This document shows positions 25,512-54,231 of a stretch of DNA of 64,000 nt, piece by piece. The stretch is taken from positions 1 through 64,000 of the forward strand of contig NZ_VDFW01000030.1 of the NCBI RefSeq assembly GCF_006152065.1. Reading direction: 5' to 3'. This DNA is from Amycolatopsis alkalitolerans (GTDB lineage Bacteria; Actinomycetota; Actinomycetes; Mycobacteriales; Pseudonocardiaceae). The translations under genes and the position numbers were made by a program. The notes under the pieces were generated by a model. It was given only the letters and a program-made list of their open reading frames with translations. It did not search any database and was not told the origin of the DNA. Each line of letters begins with the position of its first letter. Positions within the stretch are counted from its first letter, which is position 1.

Positions 25512-25784
25512 TTACCCGGGCTCGCCGCGCCGCTTCCGGTGCACGACCCAGGCGAGGTCGGCCAACGTGCCCGCGGCGAGCAGGCCGAGCAGCACCGTGG
25601 CCCACCAGAACCCGTTGTAGGCGAACAGGATCGCGGCTCCGACGGCGAGGACGAACCCGATCGCGGCGAGCCAGATTCGCAAGGTCAGCGCGCTGTAGGC
25701 GGGCGCGGCATCGCCGTAGCCGGCGGTCGGATGGTGGTAGTCCGGCAAGCCCCGTTGCCAATCCGGCCGAAAGTAGGCGGACAC
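25512..25784 (-). CDS. Small two-helix membrane protein (DUF6343-like)
   Basis: About 90 residues: a polar N-terminus rich in His and Tyr, SALTLRIWLAAIGFVLAVG leading into a first membrane helix, a second helix, and a basic tail VVHRKRRGEPG. The SALTLR-to-double-helix layout resembles the small actinobacterial DUF6343 proteins of unknown function. The start is uncertain. The GTG at 25784 lies inside the 93-base repeat copy, so its first ten codons would come from repeat sequence; a TTG at 25748 is the alternative. No good ribosome binding site is seen for either. Confidence 0.6.
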   Translation of the reverse strand: MSAYFRPDWQRGLPDYHHPTAGYGDAAPAYSALTLRIWLAAIGFVLAVGAAILFAYNGFWWATVLLGLLAAGTLADLAWVVHRKRRGEPG

Positions 25785-25846
25785 GGTCCGCAGCCGGTCT
25801 GCACGGAGACACCCATTTCCGCCGTGACTGCCGTCGGATCGGCAAC
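25754..25846. repeat. 93-base palindromic element, copy A
   Basis: A copy of the recurring element with 14-base terminal arms (GTTGCCAATCCGGC and GTCGGATCGGCAAC) and an internal hairpin GCGGAC-acg-GTCCGC. A conserved 12-base extension GAACGGCACAGT follows the right arm. It lies 124 bases past the LysR gene stop and overlaps the predicted start of the small membrane protein. Confidence 0.9.
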
Positions 25847-25969
25847 GAACGGCACAGTCGTAATCTTCCCGGCTGCGCGGCCGTTCATGGAAGAAACGCA
25901 TACCTGCCGGATATCCCTGTCCGGCGCGCTGGAACCGCGGCGCCCCCGCCAGTCCGGTGGCCGCACCCG

Positions 25970-26920
25970 TCAGCAGCCCGGGAACTGGCGGACGGCCTGG
26001 TCGAGCGGTGTCCGCATGGACAAGAGTGCCGAGGCGGCCGAGGTGAACAGCGCGCGCAGGGCCCGCGCCGCCGGGGTGGGCCGCTGGTCGCGGGAGCTGG
26101 CGAGCAGGACGCGCCGTGCGGGGCCGCGGGTGCCCAGCGCGACCGTGGTGACGTCGTCGCGCAGGCTGGTGAGCGCGAGCCGTGGCGCGAGCGCGATGCC
26201 GAGGCCGACCGCCGCCATCGCCTGCGCCTCCTGGTAGTCGTGCGCGCGGTAGGCGATCGCGGGTTCGAACCCGGCCGCGTGGCAGCTGCGGGTCAGCACC
26301 TCGGCCACCGGGTGGTCGGCGCGCACGATCCACTGCTCGCCGGCCAGTTCGGCGAAGCTCGTGGACCGGCGCCCGGCGAGCCGGTGCGAGGCCGAGACGA
26401 TCAGCGCCGTCGGATCGTCGAGCAGATGCGTGATTTCGAGGCTGTCCTCCGGAAGCCGCCGCCATTCGTAGTCCCACAGCAGGCTGAGCTCGACCTCACG
26501 GCCGGCCAGCATGTCGAGCAGGCCCGCGTTGCGCGCGCTGTACACGTTGAGGTCGACGGCCGGATGGCGGCGCCGGAACTCGCGCACGACGAGCGGCAGG
26601 AACGACGCCGCGACGGTCGGGAACGTGCCCAGCCGCAGCGATCCCGCCCGCAGGCCCGCGAGCTCGTCCAGATCGCCGCGGGCCGCGCGCAGCTCCCGCT
26701 CGATCCGCTCGGCGTGTGCCAGCAGGCCGCGCCCGGCCTCGGTGAGCGTGATCCCGCGCGCGTGCCGTTCCAGCAGCGGCTGGCCCGCCTCCGTCTCCAG
26801 CCTGCCGATCTGCTGCGACACGGCGGAGGGCGTGTAGTTCAGTGCGGTCGCGGCGCCGGTGATGGAGCCGTGGCGGGCGACCTCCGCGAGCAGCAGCATC
26901 CGCCGAACGTCGAACGTCAT
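25970..26920 (-). CDS. LysR-family transcriptional regulator
   Basis: A 316-residue LysR protein with an N-terminal winged helix (about 1-60, TGAATALNYTPSAVSQQIGRLE) and a periplasmic-binding-protein-like effector domain. It diverges from the prpF-like/tcuA-like/MFS operon. TcuR, the regulator of the Salmonella tcu operon, is also of LysR type, so this protein is probably the activator of that operon with a tri- or dicarboxylate co-inducer. A palindrome lies between the two start codons. Confidence 0.9.
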   Translation of the reverse strand: MTFDVRRMLLLAEVARHGSITGAATALNYTPSAVSQQIGRLETEAGQPLLERHARGITLTEAGRGLLAHAERIERELRAARGDLDELAGLRAGSLRLGTFPTVAASFLPLVVREFRRRHPAVDLNVYSARNAGLLDMLAGREVELSLLWDYEWRRLPEDSLEITHLLDDPTALIVSASHRLAGRRSTSFAELAGEQWIVRADHPVAEVLTRSCHAAGFEPAIAYRAHDYQEAQAMAAVGLGIALAPRLALTSLRDDVTTVALGTRGPARRVLLASSRDQRPTPAARALRALFTSAASALLSMRTPLDQAVRQFPGC

Positions 26921-26927
26921 ACACGAG

Positions 26928-26946
26928 CCTTAACTTCTGCTTAAGG
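26928..26946. promoter_or_regulatory. Palindromic LysR-type binding site
   Basis: An inverted repeat CCTTAA-cttctgc-TTAAGG lies 8 bases upstream of the LysR start codon in the divergent control region. The T-N11-A-like form and position fit autorepression and activation by a LysR protein. Confidence 0.65.
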
Positions 26947-27001
26947 GGTCTCAACTCTTTCGAGGTTGTACTCAAAGCTTGCCGGACGCAAGGTCGAAGC
27001 C

Positions 27002-28030
27002 ATGCGATACCTGAGAGGGACCTGGATGCGCGGCGGCACCAGCAAGTGCTGGCTGTTCGACGCCGAGGATCTCGCGGGGGGCGACCCCGGCGAGGTGCTC
27101 GCCGCGGCGTTCGGCGCCGGTGACCCGCGCCAGATCGACGGGGTGGGCGGGGCGACCTCGACGACGTCGAAGGCCGCGCTCGTGCGGCGTTCCGGCGCGC
27201 CCGGTATCGACGTCGACTACCGCTTCGCGCAGGTCGGCATCGGTGCCCGCCGGGTGGAGTGGGGTAGCAACTGCGGCAACTGCGCGACCGCGATCGGCCT
27301 GTACGCCCTGCTCACCGGCCTGATCGAGCCTGAGCGGGACCGCACGACGGTCCGGATGCGCAACACCAACACCGGCACCCTGCTCGCCGCCGGTATCGCG
27401 ACGCCCGGCGGTGTCGTGCCGGAAACCGGGACGGCGGTCGTGCCCGGTGCCGGCGATGGCGGTGTGCCCGTCGAGCTGGCGTTTCTCGATCCCTCGGGCA
27501 GCACCACGGGTGTGCTTTCGCCGACCGGGCGTCCGCTCGACCGCCTTCCGGTGCCGGCGACGCTCGTGGACGCCGGGGCGCCGGCGGCGCTCATCGACGC
27601 GGACGCCGCCGGGGACCTGACCGTGGACGAGCTGATCGCGTTGCGGCGCAAGGCCGCCGTGGTGATGGGACTGTCCGGAGCGGACGACGCGATCCCCAAG
27701 ACCGGGCTCGTCGGCCGGCCGCGGGACCCCGGGCACGACCTGCATGTGCGGATGGTGTCGATGCTCGCCCCGCACCCCGCGGTCGGCCTCACCTCGGCCG
27801 TCGCGATCACCGCGGCGGCGGGCGTCGAAGGCAGCGTCGTGCACCGGGCCCTCGGCGGTCGGGTGCCCGGGGTGCTGCGGCTCGGCACTCCCGCCGGGGT
27901 CGTCACCGTCCGGGCCGAATGGGATTCGGGCGGGCGGCTGCGGGCTGTCCGGTTGGACCGTGCCGCCCGGCGGATCGCCGTCGCGGAGATCTCCGTACCG
28001 CTGACCGAAGACGTGGCACTGGCCTCGTGA
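27002..28030 (+). CDS. PrpF-family isomerase (aconitate/4-oxalomesaconate-type)
   Basis: A 342-residue PrpF-fold protein (diaminopimelate-epimerase-like fold). GGTSKCW (11-17), GGATSTTSKAAL (49-60) with a probable catalytic lysine, and GSNCGNCATAIG (88-99) are the family motifs. Known members isomerise 2-methyl-aconitate (PrpF), cis/trans-aconitate or 4-oxalomesaconate (GalD). Next to a TcuA-like dehydrogenase, an aconitate-type substrate is most likely. The ATG at 27002 begins the operon. Confidence 0.85.
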   Translation: MRYLRGTWMRGGTSKCWLFDAEDLAGGDPGEVLAAAFGAGDPRQIDGVGGATSTTSKAALVRRSGAPGIDVDYRFAQVGIGARRVEWGSNCGNCATAIGLYALLTGLIEPERDRTTVRMRNTNTGTLLAAGIATPGGVVPETGTAVVPGAGDGGVPVELAFLDPSGSTTGVLSPTGRPLDRLPVPATLVDAGAPAALIDADAAGDLTVDELIALRRKAAVVMGLSGADDAIPKTGLVGRPRDPGHDLHVRMVSMLAPHPAVGLTSAVAITAAAGVEGSVVHRALGGRVPGVLRLGTPAGVVTVRAEWDSGGRLRAVRLDRAARRIAVAEISVPLTEDVALAS

Positions 28031-28041
28031 GAAGGGAAGAC

Positions 28042-29490
28042 ATGAGCGAGTCCTGGGACGTCGTCGTCGTGGGTGGCGGGAACGCCGGGTTCTGCGCCGC
28101 GCAGTCCGCGCGGGAGCAGGGCGCGCGGGTGCTGCTGCTGGAGAAGGCGCCCCGCGAATGGGCCGGCGGCAACAGCTACTTCACCGCGGGCGCGATGCGA
28201 ACGGTCCATAATGGACTGGAGGACGTGGCGGACCTGGTGGAGCCGTTCGACACCCGGCGCACCGATCTCGATCCGTACCGTGCCGCGGACTTCCTGGGTG
28301 ATCTCCGGCGGGTGACCGGCGACCGGTGCGATCCGGCGCTCGCGGACATCCTGGTGGGACAGTCACGGTCCGCGATGAGCTGGCTGAAAGGGCTCGGACT
28401 GCGGTTCGAGCTGATGTTCCACCGGCAGGCCTACGAGGTCGGCGGCCGGTTCCGGTTCTGGGGCGGGCTCGCGGTCGGCACGGTCGGTGGCGGCAAGGGC
28501 ATGATCGCGGACCACCTCGCCGCGGCCGGGCGCCGGGGCATCACGGTGCGGTTCGGCGCGCACGTCACGGATCTGCTGACCACACAAGGAGAAGTGCACG
28601 GCGTCGTGCTCTCCGGCGGGGAGCGGATCGAGGCCACGAGCGTCGTGCTGACCAGCGGCGGGTTCGAGGCCAACGCGGCGATGCGCGCGGCCTACCTCGG
28701 CCCGGGGTGGGACCTCGCGCTGGTGCGCGGCACGCCCTACAACACCGGCGACGGCATCAGGATGGCGATCGCCGCGGGCGCGCAGCCCTACGGTCACTAC
28801 AGCGGATGCCATTCCGTCGCCTGGGACGCGGGGGCCCGCACGACCGGGGACCGGGAGCTGACCAACCAGCTCACCCGCGGCGGCTACCCGTTCGGCATCG
28901 TGGTCAACGCCGATGGTGAGCGGTTCGTCGACGAGGGCGCGGACTTCCGCAACTACACCTACGCCAAATACGGCGCGGAGATCCTCGCCCAGCCGGGAAG
29001 CCGCGCGGTGCAGGTGTTCGACGCGAAGGTCGCGCCGCTGTTGCGGCCGGAAGAGTACGCCGCGCCGGGCGTCACGAAGGTCGAGTCGGACACCCTGGAC
29101 GGGCTCGCGAAGGAACTCGGCATCGACGAGGCGCGGTTCAGGCGCACCGTCGAGGACTTCAACGGCGCGGTGACGGGGGAGCGGTTCAACCCGACCGTCA
29201 AGGACGGCAAGCGCGCCGAGGGCATCACGCCGGTCAAGTCGAACTGGGCGCAGCCACTGGACACCCCGCCGTTCACCGCGTTTCCGGTGACGTGCGGGAT
29301 CACGTTCACCTTCGGTGGCCTGCGGATCGACGACCGGTGCGCGGTGCTCGACACCGCGGGGCGCCGCGTTCCGGGCTTGTTCGCGGCCGGCGAGCTCGTC
29401 GGCGGGCTCTTCTACTTCAACTATCCGGGAGGTTCCGGCCTGACCGCCGGCGCCGTGTTCGGCCGCCGGGCCGGACGCGCCGCCGCCTGA
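28042..29490 (+). CDS. FAD-dependent tricarballylate dehydrogenase-like oxidoreductase (TcuA-like)
   Basis: A 482-residue flavoprotein of the FAD-binding-2/fumarate reductase family. The dinucleotide fold VVVVGGGNAGFCAA (7-20), FGGLRID and the C-terminal FNYPGGSGLTAG are visible. TcuA oxidises tricarballylate to cis-aconitate; the closely related KstD and FrdA enzymes remain alternatives. AAGGGAAGA precedes the ATG, 11 bases after the PrpF-like gene stop. The TcuB partner that re-oxidises the flavin in Salmonella is absent here. Confidence 0.85.
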   Translation: MSESWDVVVVGGGNAGFCAAQSAREQGARVLLLEKAPREWAGGNSYFTAGAMRTVHNGLEDVADLVEPFDTRRTDLDPYRAADFLGDLRRVTGDRCDPALADILVGQSRSAMSWLKGLGLRFELMFHRQAYEVGGRFRFWGGLAVGTVGGGKGMIADHLAAAGRRGITVRFGAHVTDLLTTQGEVHGVVLSGGERIEATSVVLTSGGFEANAAMRAAYLGPGWDLALVRGTPYNTGDGIRMAIAAGAQPYGHYSGCHSVAWDAGARTTGDRELTNQLTRGGYPFGIVVNADGERFVDEGADFRNYTYAKYGAEILAQPGSRAVQVFDAKVAPLLRPEEYAAPGVTKVESDTLDGLAKELGIDEARFRRTVEDFNGAVTGERFNPTVKDGKRAEGITPVKSNWAQPLDTPPFTAFPVTCGITFTFGGLRIDDRCAVLDTAGRRVPGLFAAGELVGGLFYFNYPGGSGLTAGAVFGRRAGRAAA

Positions 29491-29522
29491 CCTGACCACG
29501 ACCCGTCAAGGAGGACGGAGCC

Positions 29523-30887
29523 ATGACTTCAGCACACCTGGCCGCCCGGCTCGACCGGCTGCCGCTCGGGCGGTTCCACCGGCGCGTGCTCTACGCGCTC
29601 GCGGTGGCGTTCGTCTTCGAGTTCGGTGACCTCAACACGTTCGCCTACGCGGCGCCGGCACTGAAGAAGTACGTGCACCTGACCGTGAACGACGTGGCTT
29701 TCGCCACCTCCGCGTCGTTCCTGGGCATGTTCGCCGGCGCGGTGCTCGGCGGCCGGTTCGCCGACCGGGTCGGCCGCCGCCGCGCCCTGCTGGTCTCGGT
29801 GACCGTGTTCTCGGTGTTCTCGCTGCTCAACGCGGGCGCCTGGAACGTGCCGACGCTCGCGCTCGCCCGCCTGCTCACCGGCGTCGGGCTCTCGGCGATG
29901 ACCGTCGCGGCGACGACGTACATCTCCGAGACGATGCCGGCCGCGCACCGCGGGCGCATGCAGGCCGGCGTGATGGCGATCGGGCTGCTCGGCATCCCGA
30001 TCATGTCGTTCACCGCGCGCGGCGTCATCCCGCTGGGCGCCGAGGCGTGGCGGCTGGTGTTCGTCTTCGGCGGCCTCGGGCTCATCGCGCTGCCGTTCAT
30101 CGCTCGCCTGCCCGAGAGCCCGCGGTGGCTGCTGCGCCACGGCGGCGACGCCGAGCGCGCGGTGGCCGGCATCGAGGCCGAGACCGGGGGCCCGCTGCCC
30201 GAACCCGAGCCGGCCGACGAGGTCGTCGAGACCAAGGTCCGCTACCGCGAGCTGCTGCGAGGCCGGCTCGGCAGGCGCACCCTGATGCTCGCCGTCGCGT
30301 GGATCTTCCAGACGCTCGGTTTCTACGGTTTCGTGGCCTGGGTGCCGACCTTGCTCGCGGAACACGGGTTCAGCCTCGTGCACAGCCTCACGTTCTCCGC
30401 ACTGACCACCCTGGGCGCCGTGCCGGGCGCGCTGCTGGCGTGGGTGATCTCCGACCGGTTCGGGCGCAAGCTGCCGATCGCGCTCGTCGCGACGGCGGTC
30501 GCGGTGTGCGGGCTCGCGTACGGCATGACGTTCAACGCGGTCGCGATCGTGGCGTTCGGGTTCTGCGTCAACGCGCTGATCCAGACCTTCGCCGCGCTGA
30601 TCTACGCCTACACGCCCGAGCTGTACCCGACGGAGCTGCGCAATTCCGGCAACGGACTGGTCTACGGCCTCGGCAGGCTGAGCAACATCGCCGGCCCGCT
30701 GATCGTCGCGGCGATCTTCGGAGCGTTCGGGTACCAGCCGGTGTTCGTCTACATCGGAGCGTGCTGGCTCGTCGTCGCGGTCACGATCGGCCTGTTCGGC
30801 CCGCGTACGGGTATGCGCAACCTGGAAGGCATCGCCGGGGAACCGGACCCGGTCGCACGCGCGCGCACTGTCCCCGTAACGGAGTAG
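29523..30887 (+). CDS. MFS transporter (organic acid:H+ symporter-like)
   Basis: A 454-residue major facilitator with 12 predicted membrane segments. Motif A GGRFADRVGRRRAL and LPESPRWLLRHGG place it near the aromatic acid/metabolite-H+ symporter families. As third gene of the operon it is the obvious importer of the tricarboxylate. A strong AAGGAGG precedes the ATG. Its C-terminal third resembles the truncated transporter remnant at 32.8-33.2 kb. Confidence 0.88.
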   Translation: MTSAHLAARLDRLPLGRFHRRVLYALAVAFVFEFGDLNTFAYAAPALKKYVHLTVNDVAFATSASFLGMFAGAVLGGRFADRVGRRRALLVSVTVFSVFSLLNAGAWNVPTLALARLLTGVGLSAMTVAATTYISETMPAAHRGRMQAGVMAIGLLGIPIMSFTARGVIPLGAEAWRLVFVFGGLGLIALPFIARLPESPRWLLRHGGDAERAVAGIEAETGGPLPEPEPADEVVETKVRYRELLRGRLGRRTLMLAVAWIFQTLGFYGFVAWVPTLLAEHGFSLVHSLTFSALTTLGAVPGALLAWVISDRFGRKLPIALVATAVAVCGLAYGMTFNAVAIVAFGFCVNALIQTFAALIYAYTPELYPTELRNSGNGLVYGLGRLSNIAGPLIVAAIFGAFGYQPVFVYIGACWLVVAVTIGLFGPRTGMRNLEGIAGEPDPVARARTVPVTE

Positions 30888-30896
30888 GCCGGACCG

Positions 30897-31100
30897 CTAC
30901 ACCAGCGCGGCGGCGCGCTCGCGGGCGCGGCGGGCCAGATCCCGGTAGGCCGCCGCGCTCGTCAGGTCGCGCGCTTCGGCGGCGAGACGTTCGTGCAACC
31001 GGCTTTTCGCCCGGAACCAGGCGGCGACGTCGGCGGCGGACGCCGTCGCCGAGGGCCGGTGGGATGCCAGGGACTGCAGCTCGATCAGCGTATTGCTCAT
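30897..31100 (-). CDS. Small helical protein of unknown function
   Basis: A 67-residue protein (MSNTLIELQSL..., ending RERAAALV), predicted largely helical and rich in Ala and Arg. GGAGG lies five bases before the ATG, which is better than for most real genes here. It has no recognised domain and is convergent with the transporter gene. I cannot assign a function. Confidence 0.65.
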   Translation of the reverse strand: MSNTLIELQSLASHRPSATASAADVAAWFRAKSRLHERLAAEARDLTSAAAYRDLARRARERAAALV

Positions 31101-31511
31101 GGTTGCCTCCGTTGTCCGCGTGCTGCCTCAGTTGACCAGGGCGAACGCGGGCGAAGGCAGGGGAAGTGGCCACCTTCGTCCCGGGGAAAGTGACGCCGGT
31201 CACCATGGACCATGGATCTTCGCGGAGGGGACTTTCGGCTCCTGGCACCGCGGCCGCGGGCGAGGGATCCTGGAATTGCCGGGGAAACCCGGTGACCCGC
31301 CCGAGGTGCTGGACTAATCGTCGAGGCTTCCCGAGCCTGGATTGACCCATCGTCGCAAGACGGGGAATTCCGCCCCCGGGCGGGCCTTTTCGTGCCCGCA
31401 GGGCGCCATCACCCGCTTCCGGTGGTCTTCCGCGTGCCGGAAACACCGGGTGGTGCGCGCGCCGGGTCCTTGCCAGCCTGGACACGGGCCCCGGCGAAAG
31501 GACGCGCGACC
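31101..31511. other. Gene-free intergenic region
   Basis: 411 bases between the small helical gene (minus) and the LLM oxidoreductase (plus). It holds the divergent promoters and a GC hairpin followed by TTTT (about 31370-31390). No reading frame with supporting signals is seen. Confidence 0.5.
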
Positions 31512-32543
31512 ATGGAGTTCGGCATCTTCGAATCATTCGACCAGAGCCGCGGTGGCGCGGCCGGGGAGTTGCTGGAGGCGCGGCTGCGGTTCGCCGCCGA
31601 GGCCGAGCGGCTGGGGGTCGGGCATTACCACGTCACGGAGCACCATGGGACGCCCCTTTCGGTGTGCCCGTCGCCGAACCTGTTCATCGCGGCGCTGAGC
31701 CAGCGGACCGAGCGGATGCGGATCGGCGCGCTGGTCAACGTCCTGCCCAGCTACGACCCGTTCCGGCTGGCCGAGGAGATCGCCACGCTCGACCAGCTCA
31801 CCGGCGGCCGGCTCGACTTCGGGGTCGGCTCGGGGGTGAGCCCGTACGAGCTCGAGATCTTCGGGATCGAGATCGCGCAGGCGAAACCGCGGTACGCGGA
31901 GACGCTGGAAGCGGTCACGAGCGCCCTGCGCACCGGGCGAATGCGCCACGAAGGCCGGCTGCTGCGGTCCTACGACGCCGAACTGTCCGTGCTTCCGGTG
32001 CAGCGCCCGTACCCGCCGCTGTGGTACGCCTCGAGCAACGCGGCGACGGCGGAGTGGGCGGGCCGCAATGCGGTCAACTTCGTGGGCAGGTGGAATCGCG
32101 GCGCGATCACCGACATCGTGCGAACCTATTGGGACGCTTGGCATTCCGGCACCGGTGAGCGCATCAACGGGCCCGTCGCGCGGCCCGTCGCCGGGATCGC
32201 CGGCAGCGTGGTGATCGCCTCCAGCGAGCAGCGGGCGCGCGATCTGTTCGGCCGCGCGAACGACCTGTTCTGCGAACGCCTGACCCATCTGTGGCACCGC
32301 AACGGCGATCACCGGGTGGACGCGGCGTTCAGCACCGAAGCGTCGCTCGCGAGCGGTGCGGCCTGCGTGGGGACCGCGGAACAGGTGCGGGACCAGGTCG
32401 TCCACCAGATCGAGACGTCCGGGGCGAACTACTTCGAGATGTCGATCTTTTTCGGCGACATGAGCCTCGACGAGGGCCTGTACAGCCTGCGCGCGTTCAT
32501 GGAGCACGTCGCCCCGGCCGCACGAGCGGCCGCCCCTGGCTAG
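31512..32543 (+). CDS. LLM-class flavin-dependent oxidoreductase
   Basis: A 343-residue luciferase-like monooxygenase. N-terminal MEFGIFESFDQ, the HVTEHHGTP region, and a TIM-barrel pattern with VGSGVSPYEL and PLWYASSNAATAEWAG fit the family. These enzymes use FMNH2 or F420 to oxidise varied substrates; which cofactor is used cannot be told by eye. GAAAGGACG precedes the ATG. Its stop overlaps the stop of a truncated TetR remnant on the other strand. Confidence 0.88.
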   Translation: MEFGIFESFDQSRGGAAGELLEARLRFAAEAERLGVGHYHVTEHHGTPLSVCPSPNLFIAALSQRTERMRIGALVNVLPSYDPFRLAEEIATLDQLTGGRLDFGVGSGVSPYELEIFGIEIAQAKPRYAETLEAVTSALRTGRMRHEGRLLRSYDAELSVLPVQRPYPPLWYASSNAATAEWAGRNAVNFVGRWNRGAITDIVRTYWDAWHSGTGERINGPVARPVAGIAGSVVIASSEQRARDLFGRANDLFCERLTHLWHRNGDHRVDAAFSTEASLASGAACVGTAEQVRDQVVHQIETSGANYFEMSIFFGDMSLDEGLYSLRAFMEHVAPAARAAAPG

Positions 32544-32767
32544 CCGGACAGCGAGTTCGCCGAGGACGTCGCGAACAGCATGCGCGCGGCGGTCTCCTCG
32601 GCCGCGCCCGGCGCCACGCGGCCCGTGACCGTCGCGAGATAGGCGGCGACGGTCGCGGTGATCGAGCCGTGGATCTCGATCGCGCGCGACTGAAGCTCCG
32701 GATGGCGTTCACTCTCGCGGAACACGACCCGGTGCATCGGGGTCTGCTCACCGAGCAGCCGGCACTA
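32540..32767 (-). pseudogene. TetR-family regulator remnant (C-terminal part only)
   Basis: About 73 codons, LLGEQTPMHRVVFRESERHP and onward, resemble the C-terminal ligand domain of TetR regulators. An in-frame TAG at 32765-32767 closes the frame, and no helix-turn-helix is present. The missing 5' part would have lain to the right, where a transporter remnant now starts. No ribosome binding site precedes the internal ATG at 32737. Confidence 0.7.
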
Positions 32768-32811
32768 CCGGGCCCACAGCGCGCCGATCGCGGCACGCGG
32801 ATACGCCGGCG

Positions 32812-33234: not shown

Positions 33235-33259
33235 CCTGGGATCCACGTCACGCTCCAGA

Positions 33260-33305
33260 TAGTTGTTATATGCAACTAGCGGGTTATAGTTGTATGTGAC
33301 AACCA
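33260..33305. promoter_or_regulatory. Two MarR-type operators
   Basis: Inverted repeats TAGTTG-ttatatg-CAACTA (33260-33278) and TAGTTG-tatgtga-CAACCA (33287-33305) lie 27 bases apart, directly before the marR-like gene. They overlap the AT-rich promoter segment, which fits autorepression. Confidence 0.75.
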
Positions 33306-33321
33306 AGTTCGGAGGTGAGCC

Positions 33322-33826: not shown

Positions 33827-33836
33827 GGGAGTGCGC

Positions 33837-42863: not shown

Positions 42864-42956
42864 GTTACTAGTCTGACCGAAAGTAGGCGGACACGGTCCG
42901 CCGCCGACCTGCTCGGAGAAACCCGTTTCCGCCGTGGCTGCCGTCGGACTGGTGAC
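42864..42956. repeat. 93-base palindromic element, copy B
   Basis: The same length and internal hairpin as the other copies. The arms differ: GTTACTAGTCTGAC on the left and GTCGGACTGGTGAC on the right. Several changes on one side are matched on the other, so pairing is kept. It sits between the ABC ATPase stop (11 bases away) and the mutarotase start. Confidence 0.9.
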
Positions 42957-42966
42957 GATCGGCACG

Positions 42967-43737
42967 CTACGTTGCGGTATTGATCCGGTATTCGGCGTGC
43001 ACGAGCTCGAGCAGCTCGGCCACCGAGGTCTCCTTGGAAGCCTTGTCGAAGGTGATTTCGCCATGCTGCAACAGGTTCACCCGGTCGCAGACGTCGACCA
43101 CCTGGCTGTAGTTGTGCGCGATGAGGATGATCGCGATGTCGCCGCGCTGTTTGAGCTGGTCCAGCAGCCGGAGGATCAGCCCGCCTTCCTTCGCGCCCAT
43201 CGCGGCGAGCGGCTCGTCGAGCAGGAGCAGCTTCGCGTTGTTCGAATACACCGAGCGTGCGACGGCGATCGCCTGCCGCTGCCCGCCCGAGAGCTGCCCG
43301 ACCTCGGCGGTGACCGACGGGATGTTGATGCCGATCGCGTCGAGCGCCTCCCTGGCCCGCCGCTTCATCTCGCGGCGGCGCAGGAACGGCAGCGGTTTGT
43401 GCACGAGCTCCTTGTTCAGGTGCAGGTTCAGGTACACCGGCAGCTCGTTGACCATCGCGAGATCCTGGAACACCGTCTCGATGCCCAGGTTCCGCGCATA
43501 CGTCACCGACTTCAGCTGCACCGGCTGCCCTTCGAACAGGAGCCGGCCGTGGTCCGGCTGGTGATAGCCGGTCAGGATCTTGATCAGCGTGGACTTCCCG
43601 GCACCGTTGTCGCCGATGAGCCCGAGCACCTCGCCCGTGCGCACGGACAGGTTGATGTCGGTCAGCGCCCGCACGGGCCCGAACCGCTTGCTGACGTGCT
43701 CGGCCCGCATGAGCAAGGCTCCGCCATTGTCGCTCAT
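42967..43737 (-). CDS. Sugar ABC transporter ATP-binding protein (single-domain, FrcA-like)
   Basis: A 256-residue ATPase with Walker A GDNGAGKST, signature LSGGQRQAIAVARS, Walker B LLLLDEP and the H-loop IAHN. CUT2 (ribose-type) transporters usually have a double ATPase of about 500 residues; this single-domain form is like FrcA of fructose uptake in Sinorhizobium and would act as a homodimer. The ATG at 43737 overlaps the permease stop (ATGA). Confidence 0.92.
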   Translation of the reverse strand: MSDNGGALLMRAEHVSKRFGPVRALTDINLSVRTGEVLGLIGDNGAGKSTLIKILTGYHQPDHGRLLFEGQPVQLKSVTYARNLGIETVFQDLAMVNELPVYLNLHLNKELVHKPLPFLRRREMKRRAREALDAIGINIPSVTAEVGQLSGGQRQAIAVARSVYSNNAKLLLLDEPLAAMGAKEGGLILRLLDQLKQRGDIAIILIAHNYSQVVDVCDRVNLLQHGEITFDKASKETSVAELLELVHAEYRINTAT

Positions 43738-47644: not shown

Positions 47645-47741
47645 TGTTCACCGCGCCGCAGCGCGGAATTCACAGGAAACTGTCAGAAATCCTCTGGATG
47701 ATGGACGTTACCGGATCGGGTGACTCAGGGGAGGGCTGGCG

Positions 47742-48923
47742 GTGCGCTGGAAGCCAATCGGGTACACCGCACTCGGGCTCGCCTCCGTCCTCGCTCTCGG
47801 CGTCGCCGGCTACGGCTGGACCCAGGTCAACCGGCTCACCAGCGGGCTCGCGACAGCCGACGTCATCGAGCCCTCGGCGCAACTGCCCAGCAGTCCACCC
47901 AACGTCCCGGTGCCCGAGCAGAACATCCTGCTCGTCGGCATCGACGCGCGCACCGACGCCCAGGGCAACCCGCTCCCGCAGAACGTCCTCGACCAGTTGC
48001 ACGCCGGCAACTCGAGCGACGGCGGCGACACCACGGACACGATGATCGTGCTGCACATCCCCGCGGGCGGGGGTGCGGCCACAGCCATCTCGATCCCGCG
48101 CGACTCCTACGTGGAGATCGCCGACGGCTACGGCAAGCACAAGATCAACTCCGCGTACACCTACGGCAAACAGGCCGCGCTCACCCAGTTGGCCGCACAG
48201 GGGGTCACCGGCGCCGAGCAGGAACGGCAGGCGGACAAGGCGGGGGCGCGCACCGCGATCCGGACCGTCGAGCAGTTCACCGGCCTGACGATCAACCACT
48301 ACGCCGCGATCAACCTGTTCGGCTTCTACACCCTGAGCAACGCGGTCGGCGGGGTACCGGTGTGCCTGTCCGAACCGGTGCACGACCCCTATTCCGGTGC
48401 GGACTTCCCCGCCGGTCCCCAGGTCCTCTCGGGCGCGCGGGCGCTGGAGTTCGTGCGGCAGCGGCACGGGTTGGCCAACGGCGACCTCGATCGCATCGCC
48501 CGCCAGCAGGCCTTCCTGTCCAGCGCGGCGAAGGTCGTGCTCGATGCCGGCACGCTGGCCAATCCGGTCAAGCTCGACAGGCTCATCGCGGCGGTGCAGC
48601 AGTCGGTGCTGATCGACTCCGGCTGGGACATCCTGACCTTCGCCCAGCAGATGCGGGGGCTGAGCGCGGACGGGCTCACGTTCGTGACGATCCCGGTGCA
48701 GTCGCTGAGCCTGCAAACGCCGTACGACGGCGACGCGGTGAAGGTCGACCCGGTCGGCGTGCGCGCGTTCATCGACAACCTGCTGGGCAAGGGCCCGGCC
48801 TCCCCGTCCGCGCACCCCTCCGGTGCGGCCGCGCAGGCGGCCCAGAGCAGTGCGCCGCCCACCACCGAGACCTCGGTCGTGCCGAGTTCGAACAGTTCGG
48901 ATCTGAGCGGCTGCGTCCACTGA
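47742..48923 (+). CDS. LytR-CpsA-Psr family protein
   Basis: A 393-residue LCP protein with an N-terminal membrane helix (about 7-27) and the catalytic domain: NILLVGIDAR, DTTDTMIVLHIP, AISIPRDSYVEI, INSAYTYG, EFVRQRHGLANGDLDRIARQQ and NAVGGVPVC. It ends with a Ser/Pro-rich tail after residue 350. It is a second LCP ligase, well outside the polysaccharide locus. The GTG start has GGGGAGGG upstream. Confidence 0.92.
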   Translation: MRWKPIGYTALGLASVLALGVAGYGWTQVNRLTSGLATADVIEPSAQLPSSPPNVPVPEQNILLVGIDARTDAQGNPLPQNVLDQLHAGNSSDGGDTTDTMIVLHIPAGGGAATAISIPRDSYVEIADGYGKHKINSAYTYGKQAALTQLAAQGVTGAEQERQADKAGARTAIRTVEQFTGLTINHYAAINLFGFYTLSNAVGGVPVCLSEPVHDPYSGADFPAGPQVLSGARALEFVRQRHGLANGDLDRIARQQAFLSSAAKVVLDAGTLANPVKLDRLIAAVQQSVLIDSGWDILTFAQQMRGLSADGLTFVTIPVQSLSLQTPYDGDAVKVDPVGVRAFIDNLLGKGPASPSAHPSGAAAQAAQSSAPPTTETSVVPSSNSSDLSGCVH

Positions 48924-49077
48924 TCGCCCGTTGCCGCCCGGTGAACCCCGCATGGCCCCGAAATGAGGGATATTCACCAACCTACTTTCGCGGGGTTTCG
49001 GCAACCGACACGATCGGGTGAAACTCGGACGGTGGTCGCGCGACCCAGTCCCTGCAGCCGAGCGAAAGAGCGATCGA

Positions 49078-50202
49078 ATGAAGCGAACGACCTTGAGAAA
49101 GTCACTGGGGGCGGCGGGCCTGGCGGCGGGTGCCGCGGTGGCGGTGTGCCTCGCCCCGTCCGCGACCGCCGCCCAGCCCATGCTGACCGCGATGCAGCGC
49201 GATTTCGGGTTGAACGCGCAGCAGGTGCAGACGCGGCTCGCGCAGGAGTCGGCGGCGATGAACCTCGCCCCGGCCGCGCGGTCCGCCGCCGGTCCGGCGT
49301 TCGGCGGAGCCTGGTACGACGCCCCGGCGGGCAAGCTCGTCGTCGGTGTCACCGATCCCGCAGTGGCCGGCGCGGTCCGTGCCGCCGGAGCGGACGCCGT
49401 CACGGTCGCCCGCACCCAGGCGGCGCTCGACGCCGCGAAGTCCTCCCTCGACGGCTACGCGGGCCAGACCGCGCCGAAGGACGTCACCGGCTGGTACGTC
49501 GACGAGAAGGCGAACACGCTGGTCGTCACGGTCAAGCAGGGCGCGGCGAACCCGGCCGTGCAGCGGTTCCTCGACTTCGCCGAGAGCACCGGCCCGGTGC
49601 GTGTCGATTCGGTTGCCGCGGCGCCCCACCTCGACGCGGGCGACGTGGTCGGCGGCGACGCGTACTACATCAACGATTCCGCGCGCTGCTCGGTCGGCTT
49701 CTCGGTCAACGGCGGATTCGTCTCGGCGGGTCACTGCGGCAGCGCGGGCGACTCGGTGACCGGCCCGGACGGCTCCGCGATGGGTACCTTCAAGTCGTCG
49801 TCGTTCCCCGGCAACGACTATTCCTTCGTGCAGACCAATTCCAGCTGGACGCCGACGTCTACTGTGGACGGTTACGGCAACGGTGACGTGACCGTCGCCG
49901 GATCGACCGCCGCGGCCGTCGGCTCCTCGGTCTGCCGTTCGGGCTCCACCTCGGGCTGGCACTGCGGCACGATCCAGGCGACCAACCAGACGGTGAACTA
50001 CTCCGAGGGCACCGTCTCCGGGCTCACCCAGACCAACGCGTGCGCCGAGCCCGGCGACTCGGGTGGCTCGTGGGTCAGCGGCAACCAGGCCCAGGGCGTG
50101 ACCTCGGGCGGTTCGGGCGACTGCACGAGCGGTGGCACGACCTTCTTCCAGCCCGTGAACGAGATCCTCTCGGCCTACGGCCTCTCCCTGGTCACCGGCT
50201 GA
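49078..50202 (+). CDS. Secreted S1 serine protease (streptogrisin/alpha-lytic type)
   Basis: A 374-residue preproprotein: signal peptide (1-32, ending SATAA), an alpha-lytic-type pro-region (about 33-185) and a chymotrypsin-fold mature domain. The catalytic triad is in SAGHCG (His), GNDYSFV (Asp) and EPGDSGGSW (Ser), and three Cys pairs match streptogrisin disulfides. An inverted repeat AACCCCGC/GCGGGGTT (48944-48997) lies in the upstream region. Confidence 0.95.
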   Translation: MKRTTLRKSLGAAGLAAGAAVAVCLAPSATAAQPMLTAMQRDFGLNAQQVQTRLAQESAAMNLAPAARSAAGPAFGGAWYDAPAGKLVVGVTDPAVAGAVRAAGADAVTVARTQAALDAAKSSLDGYAGQTAPKDVTGWYVDEKANTLVVTVKQGAANPAVQRFLDFAESTGPVRVDSVAAAPHLDAGDVVGGDAYYINDSARCSVGFSVNGGFVSAGHCGSAGDSVTGPDGSAMGTFKSSSFPGNDYSFVQTNSSWTPTSTVDGYGNGDVTVAGSTAAAVGSSVCRSGSTSGWHCGTIQATNQTVNYSEGTVSGLTQTNACAEPGDSGGSWVSGNQAQGVTSGGSGDCTSGGTTFFQPVNEILSAYGLSLVTG

Positions 50203-50215
50203 CCGGCACCGGGGC

Positions 50216-50239
50216 GGGGTGCCTCCCAGGAGGTGCCCC
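50216..50239. terminator. Hairpin terminator of the protease gene
   Basis: Arms 50216-50226 and 50229-50239 pair over 11 positions with two G-U pairs and a 2-base loop. It sits between the convergent protease and small-protein genes. No long U-run follows. Confidence 0.65.
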
Positions 50240-50242
50240 GTC

Positions 50243-50452
50243 TCAGGTGGTGGCCGGGATCCAGGCACTTTCGCGCGCGGCGAGCGCGGCGCGGCGGCGC
50301 AGGCCGGCGAGGCTGTGCTTCGCCGGGACGAGCAGGGCGGTGAGCCAGGTGCGGCGGTACTCCTCCAGCGCGAGGGCGACCGAACGGTACTCCAGGCAAT
50401 GCACCATCCCCGGCGTACCGAGCCGGTGCCTCCCGGCGTGCTTCCCTGGCAT
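50243..50452 (-). CDS. Small basic protein of unknown function
   Basis: A 69-residue protein, MPGKHAGRHRLG to SAWIPATT, with a basic N-terminus and a predicted helical middle (LALEEYRRTWLTALL). GGAGG lies four bases before the ATG, strong support for a real gene. No domain is recognised. It is convergent with the protease gene and divergent from coaE. Confidence 0.7.
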   Translation of the reverse strand: MPGKHAGRHRLGTPGMVHCLEYRSVALALEEYRRTWLTALLVPAKHSLAGLRRRAALAARESAWIPATT

Positions 50453-50576
50453 CGTTCCTCCGTGTGGGTGCCCCTTCCGCCGCGCACCGTACCCGGACGG
50501 AGAGCCAGAAGCGTAATACCTGGTCGGCGTGTCACCCGTATCGGTTCGATCACGGGTCACCTGATTGAATGCCGGC

Positions 50577-51761
50577 ATGCTGCGTGTGGGGCTCACCGGT
50601 GGAATCGGGGCCGGCAAGTCGACGGTCGCCGCCCGGCTCGCCGAGCACGGGGCCGTGCTGATCGACGCCGACAAACTCGCCCGCGAGGTGGTCGAGCCCG
50701 GGACCGAAGGGCTCGCGGCGCTGGCCGCGGAGTTCGGGGCGGACATCCTCACCGCCGGAGGCGCCCTCGACCGGGCGGCGCTCGCCGCCAGGGCGTTCAC
50801 CGACGAGGCCTCGCGTAAGCGGCTCAACGGGATCATGCATCCGCTGATCGGGGCGCGTACCGCGGAGTTGATGGCGGGCGCGGCGGCGGACGCGGTCGTC
50901 GTGCACGACGTCCCGCTGCTGGTCGAAGGCGGTCTGGGGGCGAACTACCACCTGGTGCTCGTGGTCGACGCGCCCGTCGAGGTGCGGGTGCGGCGCCTGG
51001 TCCACGCGCGGGGGATGGCCGAGGCCGACGCGCGGGCGCGGATCGCGGCCCAGGCGAGCGAGCGGCAGCGGCGCGCGGCGGCGGACGTGTGGCTCGACAA
51101 CAGTCAAAGCCCGGACGTGGTGCTGGCGGACGTCGACCGGCTGTGGGCCGACCGGCTGGTGCCCTACGAGGCGAACGTCCGGTTGCGCCGCCCCCGGGCA
51201 CCGATGTCGCCGAAGCTCTCGCGCTACGACGAGCGGTGGCCCGCGCAGGCCGCGCGCGCGCTCGCCCGGATCCGTGCCGCGGTGGGGGAGGGCGCGTTGC
51301 GGGCGGACCATATCGGCTCGACGTCGGTGCCTGGCCTGCCCGCCAAGGACATCCTCGACCTCCAGGTTACGGTGTCCACTTTGGAGGATGCCGACGCGAT
51401 CGCGGACTCGCTGTCGGACGCGGGTTTCCCCCGCGCCGAGGGCGAATGGTTCGATGATTCGATGAACGGATCGTCGCCGTGGCCGAAGCGCTTCCACTTC
51501 GGCGGCGATCCGGGCCGGATGCTCAACCTGCATGTGCGCTCGACGGAGACGCCGGCCTGGCGCCTGGCCCTGCTGTTCGCCGAGTGGCTGCGCCAGAACT
51601 CGGCCGAGCGCGAAGCCTATGCCAAGGTCAAGCGCAAGCTCGCCCAAGCACATGCGGCGGACGGCACCGTCGAGGCCTACGCGGACGAGAAGCAGGGCTG
51701 GGTCAACGCGGCCTTCCGCCGAGCCGAATCCTGGGCGGCCGCGACCGGCTGGACGACCTGA
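50577..51761 (+). CDS. coaE: Dephospho-CoA kinase fused to a GrpB (UPF0157) domain
   Basis: A 398-residue bifunctional chain. The N-terminal half (1-205) is CoaE, the last step of CoA synthesis, with Walker A TGGIGAGKST (7-16) and HDVPLLVEGGL. The C-terminal half (about 210-398) is a GrpB/nucleotidyltransferase-like domain with HIGSTSVPGLPAKDILDLQV. The same fusion is known in mycobacteria (Rv1631). The GrpB role is unclear. ATG start; the next gene is convergent. Confidence 0.95.
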   Translation: MLRVGLTGGIGAGKSTVAARLAEHGAVLIDADKLAREVVEPGTEGLAALAAEFGADILTAGGALDRAALAARAFTDEASRKRLNGIMHPLIGARTAELMAGAAADAVVVHDVPLLVEGGLGANYHLVLVVDAPVEVRVRRLVHARGMAEADARARIAAQASERQRRAAADVWLDNSQSPDVVLADVDRLWADRLVPYEANVRLRRPRAPMSPKLSRYDERWPAQAARALARIRAAVGEGALRADHIGSTSVPGLPAKDILDLQVTVSTLEDADAIADSLSDAGFPRAEGEWFDDSMNGSSPWPKRFHFGGDPGRMLNLHVRSTETPAWRLALLFAEWLRQNSAEREAYAKVKRKLAQAHAADGTVEAYADEKQGWVNAAFRRAESWAAATGWTT

Positions 51762-51781
51762 GTCCGCGATCGCGGGTGCGG

Positions 51782-52309
51782 TCAGTGCCGCCGCCACCTC
51801 AGCTCGATGTTCATCGTGGACAGCCAGTCCCGCACCTTGTACCCGTGCGCGGCCAGCCCGGCGACGGTGGTGTAGGTGACCTCCAGCGCACCCCGCGCGT
51901 CGGCGGGGCTGACCACGCCGGCGGCGGAGGCGGCCAGCAGTTCGTCGGTGTCGAGCACTTCCAGCCCGCGCCCCTCGCGCAGCACGATGTCGAGGTACCA
52001 GTCGGCGGAGCGCCAGGTCTCGCCGTCGCGGTCCACCGTGACCACGTCGAAGTAGAAGTCCTGATCGCGTTCGTGGCCAGGACTGAACCAGAAGTCGGTG
52101 ATCCGCAGCCCGAGTGCCGGGAGCAGCCACGACTCCAGGTAGTGGAACTGCGCCCGGCCGGGCGCGGGCCGCGCGACATAAAGGCCGAACGGTTCGACCC
52201 GGTACTCTTCGACCTTGCGCACGACCCCTTTCGGATCGATGTTCGTGCCCGCGGCGACGTCGAAAATCTCGATCTTCGGCGGGTGGATGGCCCCCGCGTG
52301 CTCTGCCAT
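51782..52309 (-). CDS. DUF402 domain protein
   Basis: About 175 residues of the DUF402/Ntdp fold. HYLESWLLPALGL, FYFDVVTVDRDGETWRSADWYLDIVLREG and the acidic ELLAAS segment are typical. Related proteins include FomD and nucleoside di/triphosphatases, so a nucleotide phosphatase activity is possible but unproven. A start at 52318 is also possible. Confidence 0.82.
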   Translation of the reverse strand: MAEHAGAIHPPKIEIFDVAAGTNIDPKGVVRKVEEYRVEPFGLYVARPAPGRAQFHYLESWLLPALGLRITDFWFSPGHERDQDFYFDVVTVDRDGETWRSADWYLDIVLREGRGLEVLDTDELLAASAAGVVSPADARGALEVTYTTVAGLAAHGYKVRDWLSTMNIELRWRRH

Positions 52310-52369
52310 GCGGACCATCTTCTCGGGTTTACAGCGCGAAAACGAGTGTCACGCCGGTAGGGTGATCGC

Positions 52370-53629
52370 GTGGTGGACGAAGGGGCGGTGACGGATTGGG
52401 TCGCGCGTATCGCGACCGATCTCAGCGGGCAGGCCAATGAGCTCACTGCCGATATGGTGCAACTGTACGCGCGTGAACTCCCGCATCTGGTGAACGACGA
52501 CGAGAGCGTGGTCAGCCTGCTCTCGGCGAGCCTGTTCCAGAACATCGACACCGCGCTCCGCATCTTCCAGCACGGGATCGACCCCACTCGCGTCGAGGCG
52601 CCGGCCGCGGCGATGCAGTACGCGCGCCGTCTCGCCCAGCGCGGCACCCCGGTCGTCGACCTGATCCGCGCCTACTACCTCGCCCAGACCGCGATCCTCA
52701 ACTACGCGCTGACCGAGGCCGCCAAGCAGATCAGGGATCCCGACATGCTCGGCGGCATGATGAGCAAGGCGCTCACCGGCACGTTCGCGTTCATCGACCG
52801 GGTCACCCAGCAGGTCGTGAGCGCCTACCAGGAGGAGCGCGACCGCTGGCTGCTCAACCGCAACGCGTTGCGCGCCGCCCGGGTGCGCGAGCTGCTCGAA
52901 GGTGACGGGCTCGAGATCGACACCATCGAGAGCGCGCTGGGGTACCGGCTGCGCGGCACGCATCTGGCGATGATCGTGTGGCACGCGGTGGAACCCGCGC
53001 AGGGCAACGCGCTCGGCTCGCTGCAGGTCGTGACCACCGCGCTCGGCGAAGGCCTGCCGACCACCGGCCAGCCGCTGCTGGTGCCGGCCGACGAGCGGTG
53101 CGCGTGGGTCTGGTTCCCGCTGGAGAAGGCCGTACTGCCCGAGGACGAAGAGGTCGGGCGCATCCTGGCGACCGCGGAGCCGACGGTGCGGCTCGTGCTG
53201 GGGGATCCCGCCGACGGGATCGACGGTTTCCGGCGCAGCCACCGGCAGGCCGGCCGGGTGCACGCGCTGTCCACCGCGGCGGGGGACCAGTGCGAGCGGG
53301 CCCTGACCTTCCGCGACGTCGGGGCGATCGCGCTGATGACCTCGGACCTGCCCGCGACCCGTAGCTGGGTCTCCGACATCCTCGGCGCCCTCGCCACCGA
53401 CGATGAGCAGCACGAACGGCTGCGAGAGACGCTGCTGGTGTTCCTCGCGACCGGCGGGAGCTACACGGCCGCGGCCGCGAAGCTGACGATGCACAAGAAC
53501 TCGGTCCAGTACCGGGTGCGCAAGGCGGAGGAAACGCTGGGCCGGGCGGTGACCGATAATCGTCTTGATGTCGAACTCGCGCTCAAGGTGTGCCAGCGGC
53601 TGGGCCCCGCCGTGCTGATCGCGCGCTGA
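52370..53629 (+). CDS. PucR/CdaR-family transcriptional regulator
   Basis: A 419-residue regulator: an N-terminal helical sensor-like part (about 1-165), a central GGDEF-like domain and the C-terminal PucR helix-turn-helix with TGGSYTAAAAKLTMHKNSVQYRVRKAEE. GTG start. It stands alone, so its target cannot be read from context. A diverged copy of the 93-base repeat lies six bases past its stop. Confidence 0.85.
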   Translation: MVDEGAVTDWVARIATDLSGQANELTADMVQLYARELPHLVNDDESVVSLLSASLFQNIDTALRIFQHGIDPTRVEAPAAAMQYARRLAQRGTPVVDLIRAYYLAQTAILNYALTEAAKQIRDPDMLGGMMSKALTGTFAFIDRVTQQVVSAYQEERDRWLLNRNALRAARVRELLEGDGLEIDTIESALGYRLRGTHLAMIVWHAVEPAQGNALGSLQVVTTALGEGLPTTGQPLLVPADERCAWVWFPLEKAVLPEDEEVGRILATAEPTVRLVLGDPADGIDGFRRSHRQAGRVHALSTAAGDQCERALTFRDVGAIALMTSDLPATRSWVSDILGALATDDEQHERLRETLLVFLATGGSYTAAAAKLTMHKNSVQYRVRKAEETLGRAVTDNRLDVELALKVCQRLGPAVLIAR

Positions 53630-53634
53630 CGACC

Positions 53635-53726
53635 GGTACGGATCCGGCCAAAGCGGGCAGACCCGAACTACGTGTAAACCGTTGCGACGCAAGCTGGACA
53701 GCCGTGACCGTGGCCGGATCGGCAAC
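53635..53726. repeat. Diverged copy D of the 93-base palindromic element
   Basis: 92 bases long, with a right arm GCCGGATCGGCAAC and a left arm that keeps GATCCGGC. Both arms lie where the other copies predict. The middle has diverged and the internal hairpin is lost. It directly follows the PucR gene. Confidence 0.7.
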
Positions 53727-53852
53727 GGACCGCACAGTACCTGCGCGAACAGTCATACGGCCGATAGTTTCGGTCTTTCACACCAGTCGTATGGGTGATC
53801 GTTGGGCCGTTGGCACGAAGCGAACGCGATTATTCCGGTTTACGCTGTCCTC

Positions 53853-54113
53853 ATGGGGAACGTCATCCACGCGCAGCCGGCAGAGTTGGTGGCGGTCATC
53901 CGCCTGCGCCGTGGCGTGGTGGGTGAGCGCAGGCGGGTCAGTCACCTCGTCCCGTTGCCCGCCGAGGGCCCCATCCCCAGTGAACTGACCGCCGTCTGCG
54001 GCGAGGTCATCGCGCCCGCGCAGGCCGAGGTGCTGAACGGCGTCTGCGGGATGCCGTGCGAGGCCTGCCTGGCACGGCAGGCCAGGCGCCAGTACGGCGC
54101 GCTGACCGCGTGA
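53853..54113 (+). CDS. Small Cys-rich protein of unknown function
   Basis: An 86-residue protein beginning MGNVIHAQPAELVAVIRLRRG and ending with a Cys cluster CGMPCEACLARQARR that could bind a metal. No ribosome binding site precedes the ATG, so the transcript may be leaderless. No function is assigned. Confidence 0.6.
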   Translation: MGNVIHAQPAELVAVIRLRRGVVGERRRVSHLVPLPAEGPIPSELTAVCGEVIAPAQAEVLNGVCGMPCEACLARQARRQYGALTA

Positions 54114-54138
54114 GCCGATCGGCGGCCTGAGGTCGGCT

Positions 54139-54231
54139 GTTGCCAATCCGACCGAAAGTAGGCGGACACGGTCCGCAGCCGACCTGGTCACAGACACCCA
54201 TGTCCGCCGTGACTGCCGTCGGATTGGCAAC
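54139..54231. repeat. 93-base palindromic element, copy C
   Basis: The most perfect copy: 14-base terminal arms GTTGCCAATCCGAC and GTCGGATTGGCAAC pair completely, the internal hairpin GCGGAC-acg-GTCCGC is intact and the right extension GAACGGCACAGT is present. It lies 20 bases past the uvrB stop. Confidence 0.95.

What the first reader, a model, noticed from the sequence alone, without database searches (positions are those of the whole stretch)
25754..54231. 93-base element with covarying terminal arms, four copies at gene 3' ends
Copies at 25754, 42864 and 54139 are all exactly 93 bases, with 14-base terminal inverted repeats, an internal GCGGAC/GTCCGC hairpin and a conserved 12-base right extension. 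Copy B differs in both arms, but the changes partly compensate, so base pairing is under selection or the arms co-evolve. Copies B and C lie 11 and 20 bases past gene stops, D 6, A 124. The three clear copies have the same orientation relative to the upstream gene. It could be a MITE/REP-like element domesticated as terminator or mRNA 3' stabiliser, or a structured RNA.
Basis: partly seen in the sequence, partly recalled or inferred. Interest (0 to 1): 0.75.

Follow-up and report, generated by a model that had tools for sequence, protein, structure and literature searches.

The report
Mobile hairpin DNA repeat in Amycolatopsis
A roughly 100-letter DNA hairpin has spread through the genomes of some soil bacteria (Amycolatopsis), inserting after short GTTA-like sites whose bases can then pair with the element's own foot; it resembles known hairpin repeats, but the enzyme that moves it was not found.

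Summary
The three 93-base hairpins (25754, 42864, 54139), each with a conserved 12-base tail, and a divergent fourth copy (53635-53738) belong to a family with about 58 places in this Amycolatopsis genome and 2 to 93 copies in six of 18 other same-genus genomes; twelve have none. Arms covary: 41 coincident changes on a tree built without the stem, 13 expected.

A general terminator or 3'-stabiliser role is not supported: 51 own-genome copies lie in every gene arrangement, 17 between divergent genes.

It is a mobile element. At 22 of 27 sites with alignable relatives, a relative lacks it. It inserts after GTTA-like tetranucleotides. In three of five readable cases with a non-TA target the right end is still TA, so no target duplication is evident.

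The outermost stem pairs join target bases to the element's right-arm foot. Whether the foot chose the target is unsettled: permutation gives p=0.005 (hand-read), 0.0001 (left-anchored) and 0.45 (right-anchored).

It resembles REPINs and IS200/IS605 transposition, but no Y1 transposase was found in seven carriers. Helper unknown.

The parts
25754..25858 (+). copy A: hairpin (25754-25846; arms 25754-25767 and 25833-25846) plus tail 25847-25858
   Evidence: the arms hold one A-C mismatch; its flanks found no usable match in five relatives
42864..42968 (+). copy B: hairpin (42864-42956; arms 42864-42877 and 42943-42956) plus tail 42957-42968, followed by A at 42969
   Evidence: relatives lack it at this site
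53635..53738 (+). copy D: divergent full-length member (other subfamily), right end CACAGTA
   Evidence: 79.2 bits; G006 lacks it at this site
54139..54243 (+). copy C: hairpin (54139-54231; arms 54139-54152 and 54218-54231) plus tail 54232-54243, followed by A at 54244
   Evidence: no element seen in the five relatives aligned here, but the flank is too diverged for a base-exact empty site

Best explanation
The feature is a copy of a non-autonomous mobile DNA element of about 101-103 nt. Shown: the family is dispersed in many copies; relatives have empty sites; insertion is 3' of a GTTA-like tetranucleotide; the element can fold into one long hairpin whose arms covary; a conserved tail GAACGGCACAGTA lies outside the hairpin on the right only. 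Shown at a few sites only: no target duplication. Inferred: it moves as a folded single strand acted on by an enzyme supplied in trans, and the foot of the right arm (consensus TAAC) pairs with the target (GTTA), so that the outermost stem pairs are half target and half element. That would be like guide/target pairing in IS200/IS605 elements, but with the guide 3' of the hairpin. Effects on neighbouring genes (for example a new stop codon) would be side effects.
For: About 58 places in the own genome (62 matches at E<=0.01, 4 of them antisense shadows). Of 19 genus genomes 7 have copies at E<=1e-5 (53, 93, 39, 33, 9, 8, 2) and 12 none. A right-end pattern gave 24 stretches, all Amycolatopsis, in a collection of 84,980 species. 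Empty sites at 22 of 27 sites with usable matches, 30 queried. Sharp ends and one-sided target preference: G 49, T 80, T 78, A 78 of 92 at the four left positions, none to the right of CAGTA. Site L082: 5 of 5 relatives read GGC-TTCA-ACACC, occupied GGC-TTCG-[..CGACAGTA]-ACACC, and its foot TGAA is the complement of TTCA. Target-foot association: p=0.005 over 16 hand-read sites, p=0.0001 over 18 left-anchored sites. Head-to-tail copies join as CAGTA|ATGATCC. Covariation.
Against: The target-foot association vanishes when the same sites are anchored from the right flank (22 sites, p=0.45; several of those anchors are plainly misplaced, but not all). Sites L048, L004, L037, L084 and L079 go against complementarity at insertion. 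No Y1 transposase (PF01797) in any of 7 carriers; the one match is in a non-carrier. Y2 (PF04986) matches lie in about 1,300-aa frames in 1 of 7 carriers and 2 of 12 non-carriers. No recurrent gene of a suggestive kind next to the copies examined. Of five sites with a non-TA target, L094 and L078 have right ends that could be read as a duplication, and at L079 the target depends on the anchoring. Copies are not identical (best dispersed pair 98%, median nearest neighbour 91% among 89 fetched copies), so present activity is not shown. Carriers with the most copies group on a uvrB tree, so distribution alone does not prove movement.
Confidence: 0.68

Rival explanations
1. An ordinary MITE moved by a DDE transposase that duplicates TA (IS630/Tc1-mariner type; TA habit recalled): TA at both ends is a target site duplication and the hairpin arms are terminal inverted repeats.
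For: Canonical sites show TA at both ends and one TA in the empty site, e.g. L049, L085, L051. Tandem copies share one TA.
Against: The outer ends are not inverted repeats of each other (left CCAATCC, right reads CTGTGCC inwards), and the arm lies 12 nt in on the right only. Target preference is one-sided. At L082 and L048, and by right-anchoring at L079, the empty sites lack TA yet the right end is TA.
Confidence: 0.17
2. A structured RNA or mRNA 3' element, spread by an earlier mobile stage and now kept by selection on the folded RNA at each locus.
For: Sixteen of 18 inner-stem double changes are on terminal branches, i.e. in single copies. One-side transitions more often give G-T than A-C on the plus strand: 33 to 12 in all, 23 to 11 on terminal branches, p=0.058. 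Two sites hold like copies in orthologous position in a second species (L088/L197, L049/L198).
Against: All gene arrangements, 17 of 51 between divergent genes; no Rfam match; the middle differs between subfamilies; relatives do without it at 22 of 27 sites with usable matches; truncated copies occur. The G-T excess sits on the left arm (27 of 33) and the A-C cases on the right (9 of 12), so a mutational bias could also give it.
Confidence: 0.08
3. Arm covariation reflects templated correction of an imperfect DNA palindrome (one arm copied from the other during replication), with no selected function for the pairing; the element itself is mobile. This concerns the covariation and is compatible with the main explanation.
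For: Double changes mostly on terminal branches. L048: left arm differs from the relatives' target and matches its foot; L082: foot matches the target. Correction could run either way.
Against: Many G-T intermediates persist, which one-step correction would not favour; inner pairing is kept across subfamilies with different middles.
Confidence: 0.25

Closest known systems
REPIN / REP elements mobilised by RAYT (TnpA-REP) transposases
   Same: Short, high-copy, mostly extragenic, whole-length hairpin, compensatory arm changes, clusters, non-autonomous (REPIN features from passages of PMC3116915).
   Different: Not two inverted REPs, each with its own palindrome; carries an asymmetric 12-nt right tail; no RAYT in carriers. 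PMC6006769 (passages) says its sampled Actinobacteridae carry only subclass 1.1 Y1 genes. A GTAG occurs in the left interior but varies (AGYAGG).
IS200/IS605 insertion sequences (IS608, TTAC target) and their non-autonomous derivatives
   Same: IS608 inserts 3' of a tetranucleotide that is kept in the left flank and chosen by base pairing with a guide near a hairpin foot (passages of PMC5934647); insertion without target duplication is recalled.
   Different: The guide would be 3' of the hairpin, continuing its stem, not 5' of it; one hairpin spans the element; no transposase found.
Bacterial MITEs of DDE elements with TA target duplication
   Same: Size, inverted arms, non-coding, TA at junctions.
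   Different: Asymmetric ends, one-sided target preference, TA not duplicated at L082 and L048.

Membership tests
REP/REPIN (RAYT-associated) | two inverted REP units (GTAG-type tetranucleotide plus its own palindrome) per element | tested here: not met
   Seen by eye: the ends are not palindromic units; the internal GCGGAC hairpin occurs in one subfamily only
REP/REPIN (RAYT-associated) | RAYT (Y1_Tnp) gene in the genome | tested here: not met
   PF01797: 0 of 7 carriers, 1 of 12 non-carriers (partial match, G011)
REP/REPIN (RAYT-associated) | whole-element hairpin with compensatory changes, high copy, dispersed | tested here: met
IS200/IS605 non-autonomous derivative | insertion 3' of a short target without duplication | tested here: inconclusive
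   Clean at L082; L048 agrees; L079 agrees by right-anchoring only; L094 and L078 could be read either way
IS200/IS605 non-autonomous derivative | guide tetranucleotide complementary to the target | tested here: inconclusive
   p=0.005 (16 hand-read sites), 0.0001 (18 left-anchored) and 0.45 (22 right-anchored), with counter-examples
IS200/IS605 non-autonomous derivative | cognate Y1 transposase | tested here: not met
DDE MITE with TA duplication | terminal inverted repeats reaching both ends | tested here: not met
   the right arm lies 12 nt inside the right end
DDE MITE with TA duplication | TA target site duplication | tested here: inconclusive
   fits TA targets; does not fit L082 and L048
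Intrinsic terminator | GC hairpin followed by a T-run | tested here: not met
   tail is GAACGGCACAGTA-like; 0 sites at 53500-54400, the only stretch scanned
Known structured RNA family | match to an Rfam model | tested here: not met
Known structured RNA family | transcribed and stable RNA | not testable with these tools
   no RNA data at hand

The most novel reading that the evidence does not exclude
A family of hairpin elements, in actinomycetes where no REP-type transposase was found, chooses its insertion sites by DNA-DNA base pairing between the target and the 3' foot of its own hairpin, so that target bases become part of the stem, and is moved by an enzyme of a type not yet linked to such elements.
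Probability: 0.17. Interest if true: 0.8.

Novelty: new variant of a known kind. Interest (0 to 1): 0.5.

Why it matters
Hairpin repeats of the REP/REPIN kind are described with RAYT transposases; a family that spread in a clade without a detectable Y1 enzyme points to an unknown or lost helper. If the foot-target pairing holds, it is a second arrangement of DNA-guided target choice besides that of IS200/IS605, with dozens of insertions on which to test it. It also gives an example of strong arm covariation that does not need a structured RNA to explain it.

Tried and rejected
Terminator or 3' stabiliser: rejected as a general role. Known structured RNA: no Rfam match. RAYT/Y1 helper: not found in carriers. 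Y2/IS91 helper: matches only inside about 1,300-aa frames. Linked helper gene: all-against-all comparison of 484 neighbour proteins from 113 loci gave clusters that by eye look like common paralogous families. Autonomous long version: left-only and right-only ends in G000 and G014 were listed and 20 stretches fetched, not every unpaired end; those read look truncated or internally deleted, with no transposase recognised by eye; the one left/right pair about 740 bp apart (L157) encloses a TetR-type regulator, not a transposase. No match in plasmids (subfamily I query), phages (subfamily II query) or viral contigs (right-end pattern). Integron attC: considered from memory only; the arm ends point the other way. 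Replication-strand bias: not tested.

The target-foot test depends on how the junction is read: hand-read p=0.005, automatic left-anchored p=0.0001 over 18 of 22 sites, automatic right-anchored p=0.45 over 22 of 22. In one search I left out L030, L076, L083 and L043 as ambiguous, also L045 and L040, and used only part of the relatives at some sites (copy B one of 12 aligned, L092 two of three, L050 two of three, L004 two). Relatedness of copies is not controlled in these permutations. After the novel case was lowered from 0.20 to 0.17 and the main confidence from 0.70 to 0.68.

Rows dropped: the 100-copy list was made by hand from the 151 matches (duplicate loci and antisense shadows removed). 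One search used 92 of 100 (8 tandem, chimeric or duplicate rows out); searches used 89 of 100 (11 truncated or chimeric out); one search used 87. Copies from other genomes are those fetched, not a random sample. Of 30 sites queried, L008, L001 and L080 had no usable match; C, L046, L034, L081 and L044 were not counted as readable (at L046 a G005 match runs across the site, but I did not count it).

Literature searches; no paper describing this family was seen in the listings. Passages only were read of PMC5934647, PMC3116915, PMC8266576, PMC6006769 and PMC12542641; term look-ups in PMC3733652 and PMC10969869 gave no actinobacterial passage. A prokaryotic MITE paper (PMC11602168), seen only in a reference list, is not held, so a listing in it cannot be excluded.
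Full report
What is there. The fourth copy is at 53635-53738. A covariance model from 21 own-genome copies finds 62 matches at E<=0.01 in the genome, four of them antisense shadows of stronger ones, so about 58 places including truncated ones. The genome is an Amycolatopsis: same-genus genomes have contigs of the same lengths as named records of A. pithecellobii (G014), A. acididurans (G018) and Amycolatopsis sp. GM8 (G006).

Distribution. Of the 19 genus genomes held, 7 have copies at E<=1e-5 (G014 93, G000 53, G008 39, G006 33, G018 9, G005 8, G009 2) and 12 have none (up to 150 candidates scored per genome). A right-end pattern gave 24 stretches in a collection of 84,980 species, all in Amycolatopsis. 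Outside the genus the model gave only weak matches, in 6 of 42 genomes (best E 1.3e-5). On a tree of uvrB, rooted at its midpoint, G000, G006, G014, G008 and G005 group together with G016 (no copies) as sister, while G018 and G009 lie elsewhere (one gene, some weak supports). So the family expanded in one clade rather than being scattered at random.

Anatomy. Several subfamilies share the ends but not the middle. Over 92 copies, conservation starts at the second base of the left end and stops at the A after CAGT. The left four positions read G 49, T 80, T 78, A 78 of 92; nothing is preferred to the right of the right end. The stem is TTACCAATCCGACC with GGTCGGATTGGTAA, and short inner pairings AGT/ACT and GGC/GCC follow. 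Eight of 20 pairs have both-side changes; none of 500 shuffles reached the observed covariation score, and 21 of 500 reached the number of further pair types. Because related copies can inflate such a test, a tree was built from non-stem columns only: 41 branches carry coincident changes in paired columns against 13 on average for mispaired columns (maximum 27.6 in 2000 draws); for the inner ten pairs 18 against 4. Most double changes are on terminal branches (16 of 18 inner, 17 of 19 outer). One-side transitions from a Watson-Crick pair give G-T 33 times and A-C 12 times (terminal branches 23 and 11, p=0.058), a weak sign that the plus strand is the one that folds; but the G-T cases are mostly on the left arm (27 of 33) and the A-C cases mostly on the right (9 of 12), so a mutational bias is possible.

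Movement. Relatives lack the element at copy B, and G006 lacks it at D. At C the relatives aligned lack it too, but the flank is too diverged to place the junction. Flanks of 27 further own-genome copies were searched in four or five relatives; with B, C and D that is 30 sites, of which three (L008, L001, L080) gave no usable match. Of the other 27, 22 show DNA running through without the element in at least one relative; C, L046, L034, L081 and L044 were not counted as readable. Two sites hold like copies in orthologous position in another species (L088/L197, L049/L198), and at one (L004/L199) a copy of another subfamily sits at the same place. Head-to-tail copies in G014 join directly at the terminal CAGTA (L096).

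Target. Typical empty sites read GTTA|C or GTTA|A (L049 3 of 3 relatives, L085 4 of 4, L051 2 of 2). With TA targets one cannot tell a TA duplication from an element that ends in TA. Other targets can tell: at L082 five of five relatives read TTCA|ACACC while the occupied site is TTCG[...CGACAGTA]ACACC, so nothing was duplicated. L048 and L079 also end in TA although relatives have CA or GA (L079 by right-anchoring only); L094 and L078 could be read as duplications. So three of five such cases speak against duplication.

Target and foot. The right-arm foot (consensus TAAC) is the complement of the target consensus, and among 87 copies unusual feet tend to face unusual left bases. At L082 the foot is TGAA, the complement of TTCA; at L078 it is GAAA and relatives read TTTC (one) or TTTT (the others); at L088 and L092 the foot has C opposite a G that relatives also have (3 of 3 and 2 of 3). 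Against this, at L048, L004 and L037 the left arm matches its foot better now than the relatives' target does, which suggests later change towards pairing, and L084 and L079 do not fit. Permuting feet among sites: hand-read 4-mers at 16 sites match their own foot at 2.51 of 4 positions against 2.09, p=0.005; read automatically from the left flank, 18 sites, 2.30 against 1.79, p=0.0001; read automatically from the right flank, 22 sites, 1.73 against 1.72, p=0.45. Some right-flank readings are plainly misplaced (L078, L083, L092), but the dependence on anchoring means the guide idea is a lead and not a result.

Function. The 51 own-genome copies tested lie in every gene arrangement, so a terminator or 3'-stabiliser role is not general. 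The tail after the hairpin is not a T-run in the copies listed, and no Rfam family matches. Single copies may still affect neighbours: the right end of copy B supplies the stop codon of the ABC ATPase gene at 42967.

Helper. No Y1 transposase in carriers, Y2 matches only inside large frames, no recurrent neighbour gene of a suggestive kind, and no intact long version among the unpaired ends examined. Either the helper is of another kind, or it has been lost; the best identity between dispersed copies among 89 fetched is 98%, which leaves both possible.

Comparison. IS608 inserts 3' of TTAC, keeps it in the left flank, and recognises it by pairing with a guide 5' of its hairpin (PMC5934647, passages). 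REPINs are whole-length hairpins with compensatory changes (PMC3116915, passages), linked to RAYT transposases that use the GTAG motif (PMC8266576, passages). The present family works like these in part but fails the enzyme test and the REP-unit test, so it is not filed as a member of either.

Noticed in passing
window 42957-42969: The right end of copy B supplies the in-frame stop codon (CTA on the plus strand) of the minus-strand ABC ATPase gene 42967-43737; by eye, relatives such as L138 end at the same codon with TGA.
   Followed up: partly
L096 2667-2975 (G014 contig C82); also G014 C100 177579-177784: Head-to-tail arrays of the element with a 102-nt period; in L096 the units join at the terminal CAGTA.
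   Followed up: partly
L043 1501 (G000 contig C17): A copy inserted in the T-rich stretch directly after an apparent terminator hairpin.
   Followed up: no
L048 1501 (G000 contig C7): A copy inserted in what looks like uninterrupted coding sequence in five relatives.
   Followed up: no
L004 and L199: Copies of different subfamilies at the same site in two species: independent insertion or replacement.
   Followed up: no
L058 4396-4511: A related element in Amycolatopsis sp. NBRC 101858 with the same right end but a different, long internal hairpin.
   Followed up: no
G046, G058 (other families of the order): Weak matches of the covariance model (E 1.3e-5 and 6.6e-5), possibly chance.
   Followed up: no
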